Part shown: positions 30,469 through 37,811 of the stretch, piece after piece
How positions within the stretch are numbered: the stretch's first letter is position 1
Layout: the number at the start of each line of letters is the position of its first letter
Source of the DNA: Candidatus Thiothrix putei
Lineage (GTDB): Bacteria; Pseudomonadota; Gammaproteobacteria; Thiotrichales; Thiotrichaceae
Direction: 5' to 3'
Length of the DNA stretch: 64,000 nucleotides
NCBI GenBank assembly: GCA_029972225.1
Contig: CP124756.1
Location: 2,152,001 to 2,216,000, forward strand
Notes under the pieces: generated by a model
Databases searched by the model: none
Told to the model about the DNA's origin: nothing
What the model saw: only the letters and a program-made list of their open reading frames with translations
Made by a program: the position numbers and the translations under genes

Positions 30469-31596
30469 TACTTCAACCGCCCATAATTGCAGATTCCTCA
30501 AAGGTCTGAAAGTTGAGAGTCAGCAAGGAGTCCAAGGCTTTTTTATGCGTAGTGTGGGTTTGTGCCAAACAGGCATCAATGGCCTGCGCAAACGCGGTAA
30601 AGTTTTCATGGTAACGTGAATACAGGCATTCCTTCTTCACAAACTTCCAGAGGCGCTCAATCAGGTTCAGGTTGGGGGAATAAGCGGGTAGGAACAACAG
30701 TTCGATCCCGAGTGTTTGGGCGAATGTTTGTACCAGGCTACAGCGCTGGTAACGGGCATTGTCCATCACCAAGGTCACCGGGACATCCAGGGCCAATGCC
30801 TTGATTTGCCGAAGCAACTGACAAACACTTTGGGAGTTGATGTAACTGTCATTGGTCACGGTGACCAGTTCATGGGTGACTGCATTCAACGCACCGAGGA
30901 CATTGTAGCGCTGGCGTCCGGCAGGGGCGCGGATGAACAGCCGGGTGAAACACCACAGGAACCCCAGAAACGGGGCCAGGACAAAATGGGCGGCGTCGAC
31001 AAAGAAAACGGCGCGTTTTCCGGCCTTGGCCTCCTCAAGACGCGGCTCCAGCTCTTTTTTTAAAAGTCTCCTGGGCAGCAGGGTCGGCTTTCGCCGGTAT
31101 CATCCCCACCTTCCTGACGGACAAACCCAAGTCATGCAGGAATAGCCGCACGGCTTCCCGCTTGAGTTCAAGGCCGGTTAAGCGCTGTATATCAGCGATC
31201 GCCTGACTGATCCGGGTCGGTGGATGCTTCTCAAAATGTTTCTTCAGGGGCTCACGGAAAGGTTCCAACCGGCGGGTTGGGCGACGGAAATCCAGTTGTT
31301 CCAAGGCAGCGATCCCACCTTGTTGGTAACGTTTCAAATAACGGGTGACCGTCGTTGAACTCACCTGTGCCAGCCGTTCAATGTCCCCATGCGCCATTCC
31401 CTGGCTTTTTAGCCACAACACTTCCATCCGTTGGCGGACGCGAGGGTGGGCATGGCGGTAACGCCCCTCATTCAAGGCGGTTTGATCGGATTCGCTGAAG
31501 TCTATCTGGATCATGGAAAGGACGACCGGTTGCCAATAACAGCCGTACTTTGCTTGAGGGCTTCTCATTATTCAACAGCTATTCACGGGCAAAGTA
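30469..31596 (-). mobile_element. IS630-type insertion sequence, copy 1 (about 1128 bp)
   Basis: The flanks are TA (30467-30468 and 31597-31598), as expected for the TA target duplication of IS630 elements. The ends are imperfect inverted repeats beginning TACTT with conserved CCG, ATA and TG positions. Excision leaving one TA rejoins the SIR2-like frame exactly, which supports these limits better than the repeats alone. The transposase is on the minus strand. Confidence 0.75.
30473..31514 (-). CDS. IS630-family transposase in two frames joined at an A7 run
   Basis: ORF A from ATG 31514 (MIQIDFSESDQTAL) carries the helix-turn-helix part (HPRVRQRMEVLWLKSQGM, VRKVGMIPAKADP). At A7 (31055-31061) the homologous reading moves by +1 into ELEPRLEEAKAGKRAVFFVD and on to the DDE domain: FFVDAAHF (Asp), LVMDNARYQRC (Asp), and PAYSPNLNLIERLWKFVKK (Glu). 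Many IS630 members are made by slippage or frameshifting at such runs, so the gene may be functional rather than decayed. The C-terminal frame ends at 30473, four bases from the element end. Confidence 0.85.
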
Positions 31597-31959
31597 TAAG
31601 CAAGTCACGGCGGCTGAATTCTGCGAGTGGTGGCAGGAAACTCGCACAGAGGGGGCAGTGTCAGATTTTATCGCGGATGAGAAGCAAGGTGTGGCGGAGC
31701 GCGTCCGTCAAGGCAAGGTTGCCTTGTTTCTTGGCAGTGGTGTATCAGGATTGGGGGCGCAGGAAAGTGAGCTGGCGGCGCAGCTTGCCCAGCAAGCCCC
31801 GTATGAGGCTTTTACGGGTAGCCTTTCGTCCATTGCTGAATATTACCGCCTCAAGTTCAATTTGGGGATGGATAAATTACTGGCGCGGATGGATGAAATC
31901 TTGCCGAATGATTCCCAGCAGGCGACGCTTTATCAAACCTTGTCACAGGTTCCGGCACG

Positions 31960-33383
31960 GGGTGTGAACAAAAGTGCGGTAAACCTCATGCCGCCTCAGC
32001 GGTGTTTCGCCAATAATGCTTCCATTGCTGGTTTCCCCGCATGACCCTCAACGCCAACATATCCGCCGCATTATCACTTTTCCACCATGCCCCCGATTTT
32101 TTTAAGCGTTGCTGGATGATGTAACGGTGTGCACTTTCTATTTCGCCCGACCCCACGGGCAATCCGAGGGATTTTGCTGTCGGGTAATCCAGTTGCTCAA
32201 TGCGGTTGCTCAGGTAACGGTGACAAGCTCGTACTGGGGCGTTACTGTCTTCTACCGTTTCTGCTTCGAGGAAAGGTTTCAGTGTGTCGATGACCGCTTG
32301 AGCTTGACCATCCTGTAGGGCTTTTTTCTGTTTGGCAAACCATTTATCCTTGTCCTTGAGGCATGAACAGCTTGCGGATGCTGCTGATAGGTATTCACAA
32401 ACATGATAAAAATCAATCAGGTAATGTCCTTGTGTGCCAAATTGTTCATCCACTTGACGGTTGATCCAGCTTGCCCCATCACCCACCGCATGGAGGAACG
32501 TGCTTTTTCCAAATCCAGCACGGCAGGCGGTGTCGAATAAGATTTTTCCAGCATCTTCTACCGTGCCACCGAATATTGCGCCAAACGTTGGCGTAGCACT
32601 GCCTTTGGCGTGGGCAAGACACAGGCGGGCTTCTTTCCAGCTTTCCTTTTTGCCTTTGCGCTTGTCGGGGGCTGTTTCGTCAATCTCGACGATGGGGATC
32701 ATGCTGCCGTCCATTTCGGCAATGACATAGGCTTTTCCCAACGTGCTTGGATAGTCTTTTATCAACACTTGGGATTCATGGATGCGTTTGGCGTGACCTT
32801 CGGTGATGTGTCGGATGCTGCTGGATGCCAGCCGTATCCCGTAATGTTCTTCTAATTTATCAGGCACTTGAGCAAATGAACAGTCCGCCCCAAAGTCCGT
32901 CACCGCCCGTTGCAGCGGGAGCGAACAGCCTCGGCAAACAACCTCGGCACTCTGGCTAAAGGGGCGGACACGCTTGCCGGGAATCCGGTAGACCGGTTCG
33001 CTTATGTGGATTTTTCCGTAGGTCGTGTGCCAATGACAGTTTTTTTTCCACTCTTTACATACTTCCCAATGCCTTCTTCACAGGCTGGGGCTGTGCATTT
33101 TTCTACACGTTTGTTTGCCCATGCAGTGATCGCATCATTTCCCATTTGGCGCAGTTCTTCTATCACCCGCTGTTCGGCGTCTGCTGCTTTGATAATGTCA
33201 TCACCGGCATTTTCAACCACCTCGATTAGCCCTTCCATCCGAGCTTTTAATGCGGGGTTGCGGTTCAAGGCTTCTAAAAGTTTTTGGTCGCGGGAGCTAA
33301 CTGTCAACATGGGAAAGTCCTTTTTCTCTGGTTTTAGGGGATGCCATCTTAGTCTACAGGACACCGCACTTTTGTTCACACCC
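31960..33383 (-). mobile_element. ISKra4-type insertion sequence (1424 bp)
   Basis: Perfect 21-bp inverted repeats lie at 31960-31980 and 33363-33383, starting GGGTGTGAACAAAAG. They are flanked by an exact 9-bp direct repeat TCCGGCACG at 31951-31959 and 33384-33392. The insertion splits the SIR2-like gene in the middle of an Arg codon, and removal of element plus one repeat copy restores it. The family call rests on the transposase. Confidence 0.93.
31986..33310 (-). CDS. ISKra4-family transposase in two frames joined at an A8 run
   Basis: Part one starts at ATG 33310 (MLTVSSRDQKLLEAL) after AAAGGA and includes the conserved EECRGK-like N-terminal zone. At A8 (33040-33047) the homologous reading changes by -1 into HISEPVYRIPGKRVRPFSQSAEVVCRGCS and continues as TDFGADCSFAQVPDKL. 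The catalytic region includes VIAEMDGSMIPIVEIDE (Asp), HAVGDGASWI (Asp), YLIDFYHVCEYLSAA, and LGLPVGSGEIESAHRYIIQQRLKKSGAWW (Glu). With the shift it is about 440 residues, normal for the family. Slippage on A8 is a likely expression route; decay is the alternative. Confidence 0.82.
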
Positions 33384-33990
33384 TCCGGCACGACTGGTGT
33401 TGATTTCTTCGGCTTATGATGATTTGTTGGAGCAAGCGTTCACGCTGGCAGGCAAGCCGTTTGCCCGCTTGAGCGCGATGATACGCAAAGGCAACAAACA
33501 CGAGGTGGGGCATGTACAGGTGGAGTTTTCAGATGGGAATGCCGCCGCTGGGGTATATACCAGCGAACAGGTGTCCACCTTGGAAAAAACACTGGCTGAT
33601 TATTCCATAATCTACAAAATGCGCGGTACATGCCGTAGCAACGGTAATGCGCGTGAAGCCCTTACTGTGACTGAAAGTGACTATTTCAGCTTTGCCCAGA
33701 ACACGGCGGCGATACTCCCCAACTACTTGGTGGCGCAACTGGGGGATTTGGGCTTGCTGTTTGTGGGGTATCGCCCACGCCATTGGGAAGACCGTTTGTT
33801 GGCAACCGTGTTATTGAAACGGCGGCAAGCGCCAGAACCGTGTTTCCGTTTGGTGCAGACGGGGGAAGAGCCGTTGGAAACGGTGTTTTGGCAGCGGCGT
33901 AGCGTACAGCCGTATGCGATGGATGTGCAGGAGCTGGAGCAGTATTTGGTGGGAGGGGTGGCGTGATGGAAGAGAAGAAAATCCCCCCTA

Positions 33991-35126
33991 TACCTTACAG
34001 CGTCAAGACCTGAACATTTTTAAAGGTTTGAAAATTTGTTGTCATCAACTGGGTCAGTTCTTTCTTGTGATCGGTATCCAGCTTGTCGAGACAGTTGGTG
34101 ATGGCCGCCTTGAAAGCGGGAAACTTATCATAGTATTTCGAGTACAAGCATTTTTTCTTGACGAACTTCCACAACCGTTCAATCAGATTGAGGTTGGGTG
34201 AATAGGTCGGTAAAAATAATAGTTCAATATTGAGCCTTTTCGCACAGGCAAACACGGCTTCACAGCGTTGATACTTGGCATTATCCAAGACCAAAGTGAT
34301 CGGTATTTTGAGTGCTAACGCTGCAATTTTTTCCAATAATTCACACACGCTGTTAGCGTTGATATAGGAGTCGTTAGTGATCGTGATGAGTTGTAGCGTT
34401 ATCGCATTGAGTGCGCCCAATACGTTGTAGCGTTGTCGACCACAGGGGGCTTTGATGAATACGCGGGAAAATGACCACAAAAACCCCAGAAACGGTGCTA
34501 ACACGAAGTGGGCGGCATCGACAAAAAAAGGGCGCGTTTGCCCTCCTTAGCCTCCTGAATGCGCGGTTTTAGTTCATTTTCCAGGAACTTTTCTTGTGCT
34601 TCCACATCAGCTTTGGCGGGTATCATCCCCACTTTATGGATGTCCATCCCTATTTTCTTCATAAAGACACGTACCCTGTCCTCACTGCGTTTGATGCCTG
34701 TCAGCTCCTCAATCTTAGCGGCTGCCGCCTTGCTGGTTGCGGGGGGATATTCACGAAAATAGGCTTCAATCTTGTCTTTATATGCCATCAAATCACTCTG
34801 TGGTTTATTGAATCGTATTTCTTTAAGAGCTTCTAAACCGTTAGGTTGTAGGTAGGCGTTTAGGTAGGCAAGCAGCGTGGCTTCTGTAATCCTTTCCAAT
34901 CGTTTGATTTCCTTATGCGTCAACTGTTGGGATTTCAGGTACAGCACGGACATTTTCTTACGGACTCTGGGATGAGGATGGCGCTCCTTCCAGTAGAACA
35001 GCTCCGCTATCTCATCCTCAGTGAAAGTGATTTTTAATGTCATACATTACTCATGGCTGCTTTTGTTACCAGTCATCTAACCATATTTCCTTGATCAAAA
35101 AAACTATTTTATGGCACGGACTGGTA
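33991..35126 (-). mobile_element. IS630-type insertion sequence, copy 2 (about 1136 bp)
   Basis: The element is bounded by TA dinucleotides at 33989-33990 and 35127-35128. Its ends both begin TACC and are weak inverted repeats. The target lay inside a copy of the palindromic PPFxKGG repeat (CCCCCTAGCCCCCC). Excision leaving one TA regenerates that repeat and links ATG 33966 in frame to the STAND coding sequence. It is divergent in sequence from copy 1, so it is a separate IS630 type. Confidence 0.8.
33995..35043 (-). CDS. IS630-family transposase in two frames joined at a T7 run
   Basis: ORF A from ATG 35043 (MTLKITFTEDEIAELF) covers the DNA-binding half (HPHPRVRKKMSVLYLKSQQL ... DIHKVGMIPAKADVEAQEKFL). 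On the coding strand a T7 run (plus-strand A 34523-34529) needs a -1 slip to read LFFVDAAHFVLAPFLGF. The rest carries LVLDNAKYQRC (Asp) and PTYSPNLNLIERLWKFVKKKC (Glu). Only one base is out of register and both halves are full length, so programmed slippage is plausible. It is about 60% like copy 1 by eye in the catalytic half. Confidence 0.83.
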
Positions 35127-35128
35127 TA

Positions 35129-35151
35129 GCCCCCCTTTTGCAAAGGGGGGG
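35129..35151. repeat. PPFxKGG repeat split by IS630 copy 2
   Basis: The stretch GCCCCCCTTTTGCAAAGGGG here and AAGAAAATCCCCCCTA at 33975-33990 are the two halves of one repeat arm, separated by the IS630 element. Joined, they encode KKIPPSPPFAKGG near the start of the STAND protein. Confidence 0.85.
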
Positions 35152-37284
35152 ATGGAAGAAGCGCCGTATCCGGGGTTGCGTCCGTTTGCGGAAAGTGAGC
35201 AGGGTAAGTTTTTTGGGCGTGAAGCGGATAAAGCCATTCTGGTGGACAAGATTTTGGGCAACCGTTTGACGCTGTTGTTTGCGGCGAGTGGGGTAGGCAA
35301 AAGCTCGTTGCTGAATGCGGCGGTGATTCCGCATCTGACCGCAGCGGGTGGGGAAAACGTGGCGGTGGTGCGCAATATCCATTGGGCGGATGAGCCATTA
35401 AGCCGCTTGCACACGGTGGTACGCGATACCTTGCAACAGAAAGCGATTTTGCCTGCTGATGTGCCGACGGAAGGGACAAGCCTGCTGCAACTGCTGGAAA
35501 TGTGTAGCTTATTCATACGTCGTCCGCCGTTGGTGTTGGTGCTGGATCAGTTTGAGGACTTTTTCCGCTATAACCGTTATCACCCGTCATTCCGCCCGTT
35601 TATTGAGCAGCTTACGGCGGTGATTTTGGATAACACGCTGCCGGTGAGTGTGGTGATTTCCATGCGTGAAGATTTTGCGATGGAAATGAATGCCTTCAAG
35701 CCGCAATTGCCAACCTTGTTGTTTGAAAACTATTACCGGCTGGAAAAGCTTAGCCCGGTGGCGGCGACCCAGGCGATTCTCGACCCGGTGCGGCAGGTGG
35801 ATTGCGATTATGAGCCGGAACTGTTGCAACACTTGCTGGCAGATTTGAAAGAGCGCAAGCGGGACGGGCTGGAATTGCCGCATCAACCCAGCGAAGGGGC
35901 AGGGGTGGAGGTGATTGACCCGCCGTATTTGCAGATTGTGTGTGGCTACCTGTGGCGGCTCAAGGGGGATGGGAAACTGCTGCGTTTGGCGGATTACCAG
36001 CGGGCAGGGGGCGTGACCGGAATTCTGGATTATTTCCTGAATGACCATTTGCAAGGCTTGTCTCCGGCGGAAAAGCAGTTGGCTTCGCGGGCGTTTGATT
36101 ATCTGGCGGCACAGCGCGGTATCAAGATGGCCTACCCGTTGGCGGTGTTGGCGACTGACTTGTTGAAAGTCAAACCGGACAAACTGGCGGCGGTGCTGGA
36201 TAAATTGGCGCGGGGTGACATGCGTATTTTGCATAGTCATGAGCGCGATGGGGTGCGCTGGTATGAGCTTTACCATGATATGTATTCCGACAGCATCAGG
36301 AACTGGAATACGGCTTGGAAGGAACAGCAGCATAAGCGCCAACGCTTGGTGGCACGGGTCGTGATTGGTGTGTTGCTGGTGGTGCTGGCGGTGTTGGGGG
36401 ATTCTTTGTGGTGGCTGTCTAGGAATAGTACATTTCCGGCACAATATTTGTTCAAAGAACAGGAGTTTCGTTTGATGAATTGGGGCATTCTGCCCGAACC
36501 TTTGCCGGAAATGGTGGAAATTCCCGTGACCACGGGTGAATTTCAATCGGGTGAATTGGATAAGGCTTTTGGTAAATATTACAATAAATCCTTGAGCGAG
36601 CAGGGGGCTTACGGTCAGCAAAACTTTGGGTATCCGCCGATTACAGCGGCGCTTTCTGCTCCGTTTGCCGTTGGTCAAGATGAAATCACTTATGAACAAT
36701 ACGACTATTATGTTTGGCAACAGCATCGGGCAGGAAAGACTGAAGAGGAGTTGCCCTATCCGACGGGGGCAACCCGCGATAATGGGCGTGGGCAACGTGC
36801 TGTTACTCAGGTGTCTTGGGATGAGGCAGTGGCTTATACCCAATGGTTAAGCACTAAGACAGGTAAAGAATACCGCCTGCCGACAGAAGTGGAATGGGAA
36901 TATGCTGCTCGTGCTGGTGGCAAGACGGCGTATCCTTGGGGTGATGAAGTGGGTGTGAAGCAGGCAAACTGTAAAAATTGTGGAAGCGATTGGGATGACA
37001 AGTTTATTGCACCAGTTGGTAGCTTTGCTGCAAATGAGTGGGGGCTTTACGATACTTCAGGGAATGTTTGGGAGTGGACGTGTTCTGAATGGAAACCTGA
37101 ACTTGGTGATGATGCAAAGCAGTGTGCAGGGGAGGGTGCATCCGTGCGCCGCGTGATTCGCGGCGGCTCGTGGAACGACTCTCCCGATTGGGTGCGTTCT
37201 TCCGCGCGTCTCAGGCTCTACCCCGACTTCCGTAACGATTTTGTGGGTTTTCGCGTTTTGCGCCTTTCCCGCCAGGACAATTAG
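35152..37284 (+). CDS. STAND NTPase with transmembrane helix and C-terminal SUMF1/FGE-sulfatase domain
   Basis: The surviving frame encodes 710 residues: the nSTAND1-type N-terminus YPGLRPFAESEQGKFFGRE, Walker A in AASGVGKSSLL (~44-54), Walker B in LVLVLDQFEDFF (~127-138), a winged-helix-like zone to ~390, one transmembrane helix (~398-422, VIGVLLVVLAVLG), and a SUMF1/FGE-type domain (~470-705) with YRLPTEVEWEYAARAGG, YDTSGNVWEWT, RRVIRGGSWND and FRVLR. The original start was probably ATG 33966, overlapping the SIR2 stop; IS630 copy 2 has displaced it, leaving ATG 35152 next to AAAGGGG. With the NTPase inside, the SUMF1 domain would face the periplasm and could act as the sensor. Family knowledge: STAND proteins with SIR2 or TIR partners act in antiphage or suicide responses. 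Confidence 0.82.
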   Translation: MEEAPYPGLRPFAESEQGKFFGREADKAILVDKILGNRLTLLFAASGVGKSSLLNAAVIPHLTAAGGENVAVVRNIHWADEPLSRLHTVVRDTLQQKAILPADVPTEGTSLLQLLEMCSLFIRRPPLVLVLDQFEDFFRYNRYHPSFRPFIEQLTAVILDNTLPVSVVISMREDFAMEMNAFKPQLPTLLFENYYRLEKLSPVAATQAILDPVRQVDCDYEPELLQHLLADLKERKRDGLELPHQPSEGAGVEVIDPPYLQIVCGYLWRLKGDGKLLRLADYQRAGGVTGILDYFLNDHLQGLSPAEKQLASRAFDYLAAQRGIKMAYPLAVLATDLLKVKPDKLAAVLDKLARGDMRILHSHERDGVRWYELYHDMYSDSIRNWNTAWKEQQHKRQRLVARVVIGVLLVVLAVLGDSLWWLSRNSTFPAQYLFKEQEFRLMNWGILPEPLPEMVEIPVTTGEFQSGELDKAFGKYYNKSLSEQGAYGQQNFGYPPITAALSAPFAVGQDEITYEQYDYYVWQQHRAGKTEEELPYPTGATRDNGRGQRAVTQVSWDEAVAYTQWLSTKTGKEYRLPTEVEWEYAARAGGKTAYPWGDEVGVKQANCKNCGSDWDDKFIAPVGSFAANEWGLYDTSGNVWEWTCSEWKPELGDDAKQCAGEGASVRRVIRGGSWNDSPDWVRSSARLRLYPDFRNDFVGFRVLRLSRQDN
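37144..37266 (+). other. Possible diversity-generating-retroelement variable region in the STAND-SUMF1 gene
   Basis: The last ~40 codons (RRVIRGGSWND ... FRNDFVGFRVLR) match the place and motif of variable regions in C-type-lectin/SUMF1 proteins diversified by retroelements. Base composition turns abruptly GC-rich and C-ending here relative to the preceding T-rich codons. No reverse transcriptase or template repeat is visible in the window, so this is a hypothesis. Confidence 0.3.
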
Positions 37285-37287
37285 CCC

Positions 37288-37415
37288 TGAAGAAAATCCT
37301 CCCCCAACCCCTCCTTTTGCAAAGGAGGGGGCAAGAGGGGATTCTGTTGACTATGTGGGGATATTCTCTGGCCTCCCCCTTTGAAAAAGGGGGAATGAGG
37401 GGGATTTTCTTCAAG
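37288..37415. repeat. Paired palindromic PPFxKGG repeats, intergenic
   Basis: Two oppositely oriented repeat arms, GAAGAAAATCCTCCCCC... and its counterpart ending GGGGGATTTTCTTC, each carry an inner palindrome (CTCCTTTTGCAAAGGAG and CCCCCTTTGAAAAAGGGGG). They fill most of the 140 bases between the STAND gene and the DUF559 gene and could fold as a long hairpin. Confidence 0.88.
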
Positions 37416-37424
37416 GAAAAAACC

Positions 37425-37811
37425 ATGCTCGATTACAATCCAGCCCTACGAGATGCTGCCCGTGACCTACGCAAGCACCAGACCGAAGCCGAAACGCGCC
37501 TCTGGGAAAGGTTACGCCGCAAGCAACTTTGTGGCGTCCAGTTCTACCGCCAGAAACCACTTGGCAGTTTCATTGCCGATTTTTACTGCGCCGCAGCTAA
37601 CCTCGTTATCGAACTTGACGGCAAACACCATGCCGAAGGCAATCAGCTTGCCTATGACCAAGAGCGCACCCTGCAACTTGAGGCATTGGGTTTGCACATC
37701 CTCCGTTTCGACAACCAAAATGTTCTTCAAAACATCGACGTTGTAGTGACGCAGATACAAACCACCCTACTGGCACGCATCCAGTTCCCCCCTTTGAAAA
37801 AGGGGGGTTAG
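37425..37811 (+). CDS. DUF559 domain-containing endonuclease-like protein
   Basis: A 128-residue protein of the DUF559 group, related to very-short-patch-repair-type (PD-(D/E)XK) nucleases: LRKHQTEAETRLWERLRRKQL, FYRQKPLGSFIADFYC, LVIELDGKHHAEGNQLAYDQERTLQLEALGLHILRFDN. The acids in IADFYC and IELDGKHH are the likely active site. It starts at ATG 37425 after AAGGAAAA. The last codons (FPPLKKGG) and the stop codon come from a palindromic repeat, so the natural C-terminus has been replaced or extended. Function in the cell is unknown. Confidence 0.85.
   Translation: MLDYNPALRDAARDLRKHQTEAETRLWERLRRKQLCGVQFYRQKPLGSFIADFYCAAANLVIELDGKHHAEGNQLAYDQERTLQLEALGLHILRFDNQNVLQNIDVVVTQIQTTLLARIQFPPLKKGG

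What the first reader, a model, noticed from the sequence alone, without database searches (positions are those of the whole stretch)
37144..37266. STAND-SUMF1 C-terminus looks like a diversity-generating-retroelement target
The final codons (RGGSWND ... RNDFVGFRVLR) sit exactly where variable regions lie in C-type-lectin/SUMF1 proteins diversified by retroelements. Codon usage shifts sharply to C-ending triplets there. If true, the sensor of a suicide NTPase would be hypervariable. No reverse transcriptase or template repeat is in this window, so a distant cassette would be required.
Basis: inference. Interest (0 to 1): 0.6.

Follow-up and report, generated by a model that had tools for sequence, protein, structure and literature searches.

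The report
Orphaned variable region of bacterial immune sensor
The end of this bacterial sensor gene was once rewritten by a built-in mutation machine (a diversity-generating retroelement), but the template it would need is not found in this genome, so the sensor now looks frozen.

Summary
Window 37151-37271, the last codons of an intact nSTAND1-TM-FGE gene (35152-37284), is a genuine diversity-generating-retroelement (DGR) variable region (VR). An orthologous target with a complete Avd-RT-template cassette exists in a tubeworm endosymbiont (L058). Against that template the window differs at 19 of 29 adenines but 11 of 70 other bases. Four orthologous VRs differ pairwise at 15-20 of 29 template-adenine sites, but at 0-1 of 39 other first/second codon positions.

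The genome (one 4.28-Mb contig) holds one intact DGR 338 kb away and two broken ones. None of their templates fits this VR, and a template profile found no further template. The VR therefore looks orphaned. A 124-bp MITE-like hairpin starts 4 bp after the stop codon, where some relatives keep Avd, RT or template.

The gene is also a chimera. Its NTPase half is 56% identical to a SIR2-linked HEAT-repeat STAND; its sensor half is 58% identical to a TIR-nSTAND1-FGE protein. The SIR2 gene upstream is split by an insertion sequence.

Leftover DGR targets, and MITEs replacing DGR parts, are published. This is a clear new case of a known kind with an unusual sensor swap.

The parts
35152..37284 (+). 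nSTAND1-TM-FGE protein, 710 aa, intact ORF: chimeric STAND NTPase with C-terminal FGE/C-type-lectin sensor
   Evidence: halves have different nearest relatives
37151..37271 (+). DGR variable region (VR) without a cognate template in the genome
   Evidence: coordinates by homology to the L058 VR; adenine-site divergence; no template
36346..36402 (+). predicted transmembrane segment between NTPase and sensor (residues 399-417), positive residues on its N-terminal side
   Evidence: Kyte-Doolittle 19-residue maximum 2.51
37289..37412 (+). MITE-like hairpin repeat directly after the VR gene; the same kind of repeat follows the VR gene in G001 and G015
   Evidence: ends read from the sequence printed
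31550..31959 (+). N-terminal piece of an interrupted SIR2 gene (GSGVS motif, recalled as a SIR2 nucleotide-binding motif)
   Evidence: no Pfam hit alone; homologous to SIR2 genes upstream of STAND genes in relatives
33397..33966 (+). C-terminal piece of the SIR2 gene (SIR2_2); its stop overlaps the ATG of the left copy of the STAND gene start
   Evidence: junction read
31960..33383 (.). insertion sequence inside the SIR2 gene: UPF0236-type ORF, 20-bp terminal inverted repeats, flanking direct repeat
   Evidence: ends read
33974..35150 (.). MITE arm carrying an IS630-type transposase (DDE_3) between SIR2 and STAND, flanked by a 9-bp direct repeat that contains the STAND start codon
37425..37811 (+). 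DUF559 gene after the hairpin (ORF from 37317; the ATG at 37425 follows the hairpin)
   Evidence: sequence

Best explanation
The last ~120 bp of the STAND-FGE gene is a real DGR variable region that has lost its machinery. It was diversified in the past by an Avd-RT-template cassette of the type still complete in L058, through adenine-directed mutagenic retrohoming. The protein most likely works as a membrane-anchored immune receptor: a periplasmic FGE/C-type-lectin sensor, a cytoplasmic nSTAND1 switch, and a SIR2 effector encoded just upstream. In this genome no template fits any more, so the binding surface is fixed and inherited like an ordinary gene; and because the SIR2 gene is split by an IS, the system is probably decaying. 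Shown: VR identity, absence of a fitting template in the held contig, the chimera, the broken SIR2 gene, the flanking MITE-like repeats. Inferred: past retrohoming at this very gene, ligand binding, topology, NAD-directed effector action, loss of the cassette in place.
For: Against the L058 template the window differs at 19/29 A and 11/70 non-A sites, Fisher p 2.3e-6, the fewest non-A mismatches of 17 template-like repeats. Four orthologous VRs differ pairwise at 15-20/29 template-A sites, 0-1/39 other codon positions 1-2, 3-9/28 other third positions. At 9 template AAY codons the window keeps the third base in 8/9 but A at positions 1-2 in 7/18; in the other 23 codons it keeps 41/46 and 11/23. 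Nine ordinary FGE tails keep the third base in 2-4/9. L058 carries TIR-nSTAND1-FGE, Avd (NF033474 over cut-off), RT with GNLTSQ and YVDD, and TR. The template profile in the own genome finds TR-B, TR-A and half of TR-C, the rest being FGE-type tails and one 12-codon match at E 0.43. A hairpin repeat follows the stop codon; G001 and G015 show the same. In G011 the orthologue keeps a shortened Avd without RT or TR in its 17-kb locus. Sensor domain matches the DGR variable protein 2y3c, phmmer E 7.1e-15, Foldseek E 1.9e-12.
Against: No second strain of the same species was available, so population variation was not measured. The best outside template is not identical at non-adenine sites (11/70 differ), so it is a relative, not the template. 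The ordinary FGE tails also show a milder A-site excess against the L058 template (one-sided p 0.0068-0.41 in nine). An extra plasmid may be missing from the one-contig assembly. The 710-aa ORF is undamaged, so the gene may still be useful.
Confidence: 0.83

Rival explanations
1. Active VR served in trans by one of the other DGRs of the genome (RT-A with its own or another template).
For: RT-A and Avd-A are intact and recently used: TR-A/VR-A differ at 13/29 A and 0/95 other sites. Trans action between loci is proposed for Thiohalocapsa PB-PSB1 (PMC10907252, section 8).
Against: TR-A and TR-B differ from the window VR at 23/73 and 26/72 non-A sites; the half TR-C does not carry this tail either. 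No other template in the profile search.
Confidence: 0.04
2. The template and RT exist in the organism but not in the held contig (plasmid or structural variant), so the VR is still active.
For: PB-PSB1 populations hold variants with intact RT/TR beside MITE-degraded ones (PMC10907252, section 7). The assembly is a single contig.
Against: No match to the VR in 72,556 plasmid records; the genus relatives with this VR type lack an RT of the L058 type: best identity 49% over a part, 44% over full length, in 16 genomes.
Confidence: 0.1
3. The sensor module arrived by recombination already diversified and alone; this gene never had its own cassette. This rivals only the 'lost in place' part.
For: The protein is a chimera: its NTPase half belongs to HEAT-type STANDs (11 of 26 loci, none of them matching the FGE half), its FGE half to other proteins (15 of 26 loci; NTPase half unmatched in 10 and 23-26% identical in 5). 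All 20 other strong matches in 63 family genomes cover one half only.
Against: The breakpoint lies just past the VR and is filled by a repeat also found after VRs of non-chimeric relatives G001 and G015; VR tails would normally travel with the sequence behind them.
Confidence: 0.3
4. Ordinary FGE enzyme C-terminus, resemblance by fold only.
For: All FGE-fold tails share RGGSW...GFR; PvdO is the best solved match.
Against: Adenine-site and third-base pattern, shared with a template-bearing orthologue and far stronger than in nine ordinary tails.
Confidence: 0.02

Closest known systems
DGR 6 of Thiohalocapsa PB-PSB1 (nSTAND1 + FGE targets; PMC10907252)
   Same: Same target class: nSTAND1 with C-terminal FGE domain carrying the VR, proposed as antigen sensor
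   Different: PB-PSB1 DGR 6 targets carry EAD8 and sit with a trypsin-like peptidase; here there is a TM segment, an upstream SIR2 gene, and no fitting template
DGR 4, 5 and 7 of PB-PSB1, with MITE-like arrays in place of RT or template (PMC10907252, section 7)
   Same: MITE-like hairpins stand where DGR parts should be, VR genes remain
   Different: There a template in trans or intact variants are known; here none was found
Leftover target genes of Treponema denticola DGRs (PMC4891356, section 11)
   Same: VRs that differ from a relative's template mostly at adenines, in genomes lacking that template
   Different: Different target protein; here other DGRs, one of them intact, coexist in the genome
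TvpA, PDB 2y3c
   Same: FGE/C-type-lectin fold with the DGR VR at the C-terminus; sequence and fold match
   Different: No STAND NTPase in the solved chain
TIR-nSTAND1-FGE target with Avd-RT-TR of the Lamellibrachia barhami endosymbiont (L058)
   Same: Orthologous FGE sensor and VR; its template explains the window VR pattern
   Different: TIR head and complete cassette; the nSTAND1 half is unrelated at close range (no tblastn hit at E 1e-5)
SIR2 + nSTAND1-HEAT gene pairs of Thiothrix and relatives (L046-L051, L069)
   Same: SIR2 gene directly upstream and nSTAND1 domain 48-56% identical
   Different: Sensor is HEAT repeats (Pfam, tested in L046 and L074 only), not FGE; no VR

Membership tests
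DGR variable region (target) | C-terminal VR in a C-type-lectin/FGE-fold protein | tested here: met
   Pfam FGE; 2y3c match by sequence and fold
DGR variable region (target) | Differences from a template concentrated at template adenines | tested here: met
   Met only with a relative's template: 19/29 A, 11/70 non-A; orthologue comparison
DGR variable region (target) | Cognate template repeat in the genome, identical at non-adenine sites | tested here: not met
   own genome is one contig of 4,277,058 bases
DGR variable region (target) | DGR reverse transcriptase and Avd in the genome | tested here: met
   RT-A with GNLTSQ and YVDD, Avd over the NCBIfam cut-off, 338 kb away, with a different template
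DGR variable region (target) | Variation at adenine sites within the species | not testable with these tools
   One genome per species is held
Short hairpin/cruciform 3' of the VR as in BPP-1 (PMC3240598) | GC-rich stem of 7-10 bp with 4-nt GRNA loop, 4-34 bp after the VR | tested here: not met
   Only by reading the sequence behind the stop: a long MITE-like hairpin instead
STAND NTPase immune receptor | STAND NTPase domain with C-terminal sensor | tested here: met
   nSTAND1 E 1.7e-51, FGE E 3.6e-46
STAND NTPase immune receptor | Fused or linked effector, intact | tested here: not met
   SIR2 gene upstream but split by an IS; no fused effector in the 710 aa
STAND NTPase immune receptor | Phage protection | not testable with these tools
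   Needs an assay; no PADLOC model hit for the window protein at E 1e-5
Formylglycine-generating enzyme | Catalytic copper-binding cysteines | not tested
   Active-site residues were not mapped

The most novel reading that the evidence does not exclude
A STAND defence operon swapped its HEAT-repeat sensor for a DGR-diversified ectodomain and then dropped the mutagenesis cassette, so that a chosen binding specificity was fixed: a bacterial analogue of drawing one receptor from a diversified repertoire and locking it in the germline, with MITE-like repeats as the cutting tool. Several Thiothrix relatives show VR genes of this type at different stages: complete (L058, outside the genus), Avd only (G011), template without RT (L055, L056), VR followed by a MITE-like repeat (window, G001, G015, and G006 a little further on).
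Probability: 0.12. Interest if true: 0.7.

Novelty: new member of a known kind. Interest (0 to 1): 0.42.

Why it matters
It shows from one genome and its relatives that a hypervariable sensor can be orphaned and moved between defence operons. If orphan VRs are fixed specificities kept by selection, they record which targets mattered, and the many VR-like tails in this genus (matches to the template profile in 16 of 16 genomes, though ordinary FGE tails are among them) would make that testable.

Tried and rejected
Rejected: service by the genome's own templates (too many non-adenine mismatches); a template in the other weak BLAST places (L005-L013 encode no FGE tail where the match lies); ordinary FGE tail. 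Led nowhere: literature searches for Thiothrix with 'diversity-generating retroelement' or 'retroelement', 0 papers each; a five-term search for orphan or remote variable regions, 0 papers; PADLOC for the window protein, no hit; plasmid collection, no match. The AlphaFold model (mean pLDDT 80.6) was used only for a fold search; variable residues were not mapped on it, and residues 173-198 of the model are below pLDDT 50. One search scanned for templates only inside each locus, and searches compare without gaps. One search returned nothing because of a wrong spacing in my expression and was repeated.

Papers: PMC10907252, abstract, passages and sections 7 and 8; PMC4891356, passages and section 11; PMC3240598, PMC8144416 and PMC7159879, passages only; other papers, listings only.

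Full report
What is there. The window lies at 2152001-2216000 of a one-contig genome of 4,277,058 bases. The genus is most likely Thiothrix: same-genus handles have contigs of the same lengths as named Thiothrix records, for example 4,541,730 (G009 and CP059265.1) and 56,135 (G002:C22 and NZ_FNQP01000020.1). The ORF 35152-37284 encodes 710 aa with nSTAND1 (residues 5-401), a hydrophobic segment at 399-417, and an FGE-sulfatase domain (453-704). The finding's coordinates and peptide are correct, and the codon shift is real.

DGRs in the genome. PF00078 gives five matches. One, RT-A (364 aa, GNLTSQ at 203 and YVDD at 234), is followed by an Avd over the NCBIfam cut-off. It lies next to an FGE gene whose VR differs from a template at 2531.7 kb at 13 of 29 adenines and 0 of 95 other bases (repeat ends set where the match ends). 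The same RT at 97% identity is in G004; the two VRs differ at 16 of 27 template-adenine sites and 1 of 83 others, so this DGR has been active. DGR-B at 2117-2121 kb has a NACHT-FGE target, an Avd, a template (14 of 27 A, 0 of 104 others changed), and an RT in two frames lacking about residues 164-222, the GNLTSQ motif included. DGR-C at 3171 kb has a truncated RT that runs into half a template; over 57 bases, 12 of 18 A and 5 of 39 others differ from the neighbouring VR. The RT beside Cas1 at 1094 kb is not a DGR; the fifth long RT (588-aa frame, L015) was not classified.

Is the window tail a VR? In L058 (endosymbiont of Lamellibrachia barhami) a TIR-nSTAND1-FGE gene is followed by Avd, RT and a template; over 121 bases 12 of 32 template adenines are changed (the extent was defined by the absence of other changes). 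The window tail differs from this template at 19 of 29 A and 11 of 70 other bases (two-sided p 2.3e-6, the fewest non-A differences among 17 template-like repeats). Pairwise among window, L079, L054 and the L058 VR, template-A sites differ at 15-20 of 29, other first/second positions at 0-1 of 39, other third positions at 3-9 of 28. At nine AAY template codons the window keeps the third base in 8 and a pyrimidine in 9, but A at only 7 of 18 first/second positions. This is the reverse of ordinary coding divergence. Controls: nine tails that I take for ordinary FGE proteins keep 2-4 of 9 third bases and differ at 14-21 of 29 A and 24-33 of 67 other sites, one-sided p 0.0068-0.41, against 1.8e-6 for the window. 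A mild A-site excess thus exists in non-targets too.

Is there a template for it? BLAST of the VR in the own genome found no near copy (13 matches, the best other one 71% over 108 bases, in another FGE gene). A profile of five templates found, in order, TR-B, TR-A, the window VR itself, eleven further FGE-type or half-template places (half of TR-C among them), and one 12-codon match at E 0.43; 15 in all. TR-A and TR-B differ from the window VR at 23 of 73 and 26 of 72 non-A sites. The RT type of L058 is not in the 16 genus genomes: best 44% identity over full length, 49% over a part. So within the held contig the VR is an orphan.

How the cassette may have gone. In L058 the order is VR-Avd-RT-TR. 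In G011 (L054) the VR gene is followed by an Avd of 108 aa, 84% identical to L058's over 101 aa, and no RT or template was found in the 17-kb locus. In L055 and L056 a template lies about 350 bp behind the VR and no RT was found in the loci. In the window a hairpin repeat begins 4 bp after the stop (-70 kcal/mol for 142 nt), then a DUF559 gene. In G001 and G015 the same repeat and, by eye, a similar gene follow the VR; in G006 the repeat follows after about 35 bp more. Three further pieces of the repeat lie elsewhere in the window (12.5, 37.8 and 38.8 kb). MITE-like arrays replacing RT or template are described in Thiohalocapsa PB-PSB1 (PMC10907252 section 7).

The gene is a chimera. Of 26 loci from genome contigs, 11 match the NTPase half (31-56% identity) and none of these the FGE half; 15 match the FGE half (42-58%), of which 10 show no NTPase match and 5 one of only 23-26%. 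Direct comparison: 56% over 399 residues to L046, 27% over 247 to L054. In 63 family genomes all 20 other matches at E 1e-90 cover one half only (in some genomes only 18 candidates were scored). HEAT repeats follow nSTAND1 in the two relatives tested, L046 and L074. In 7 of the 11 NTPase-half loci both SIR2 pieces match directly upstream; of the other four, L052 holds only 2.5 kb upstream and L059 has one distant C-terminal match. In the window the SIR2 gene is split by an IS with terminal inverted repeats, and a MITE arm with an IS630-type transposase, flanked by a 9-bp direct repeat containing the STAND start codon, lies between SIR2 and STAND. The left copy of that start codon overlaps the SIR2 stop, which suggests that the two genes were once translationally coupled (inference).

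How it most likely works. The FGE domain matches the DGR variable protein 2y3c. With RQR-rich residues before the TM segment the sensor would be periplasmic (positive-inside rule, recalled). Ligand binding would switch the STAND domain and a SIR2 effector (recalled: SIR2 effectors deplete NAD in phage defence). None of this is tested, and the effector is broken here.

Known or new. nSTAND1-FGE DGR targets, trans targets and MITE-degraded DGR loci are in PMC10907252; leftover targets whose VRs differ from relatives' templates mostly at adenines are in PMC4891356 section 11. I found no paper naming Thiothrix with DGRs, and none that reports a SIR2-linked STAND with a DGR sensor: one search gave one paper, PMC8195603, seen only as a listing. 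Verdict: a real DGR variable region, orphaned; new member of a known kind, with a sensor swap as its unusual feature.

Noticed in passing
L016/L019/L038 (G000:C1:2526.8-2531.8 kb): Intact DGR: FGE target with VR, RT, Avd, and a template about 2.5 kb upstream of the target gene on the same strand.
   Followed up: partly
L041 6944-10717: DGR-B: NACHT-FGE target with template and Avd, RT broken; an IS end similar to the one in the window's SIR2 gene lies at the target's N-terminus, and an IS630 copy nearby.
   Followed up: partly
L040 9181-9789: Truncated DGR RT that reads in frame into half a template repeat.
   Followed up: partly
L021 (G000:C1:2696-2698 kb) and L043 (2932 kb): Three more FGE genes with VR-like tails; the two neighbours at 2696-2698 kb are 104/120 identical in the tail. 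No template for them was found in the genome; possible further orphan VRs.
   Followed up: no
L055 and L056: VR and template about 350 bp apart with no RT or Avd found in the locus, yet all VR/template differences that I saw are at template adenines: possibly served in trans.
   Followed up: no
L054 and L056, behind the VR: GC-rich inverted repeats (ACCGCGC...GCGCGGT) roughly 100 bp behind the VR; perhaps the counterpart of the BPP-1 cruciform.
   Followed up: no
L014 300-2130: Cas1 gene directly followed by a reverse transcriptase gene: RT-associated CRISPR adaptation module in the same genome.
   Followed up: partly
window 30473-31568: A second IS630-type transposase in two ORFs (by similarity to the one at 33995-35043, read by eye) just upstream of the SIR2 piece.
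   Followed up: no
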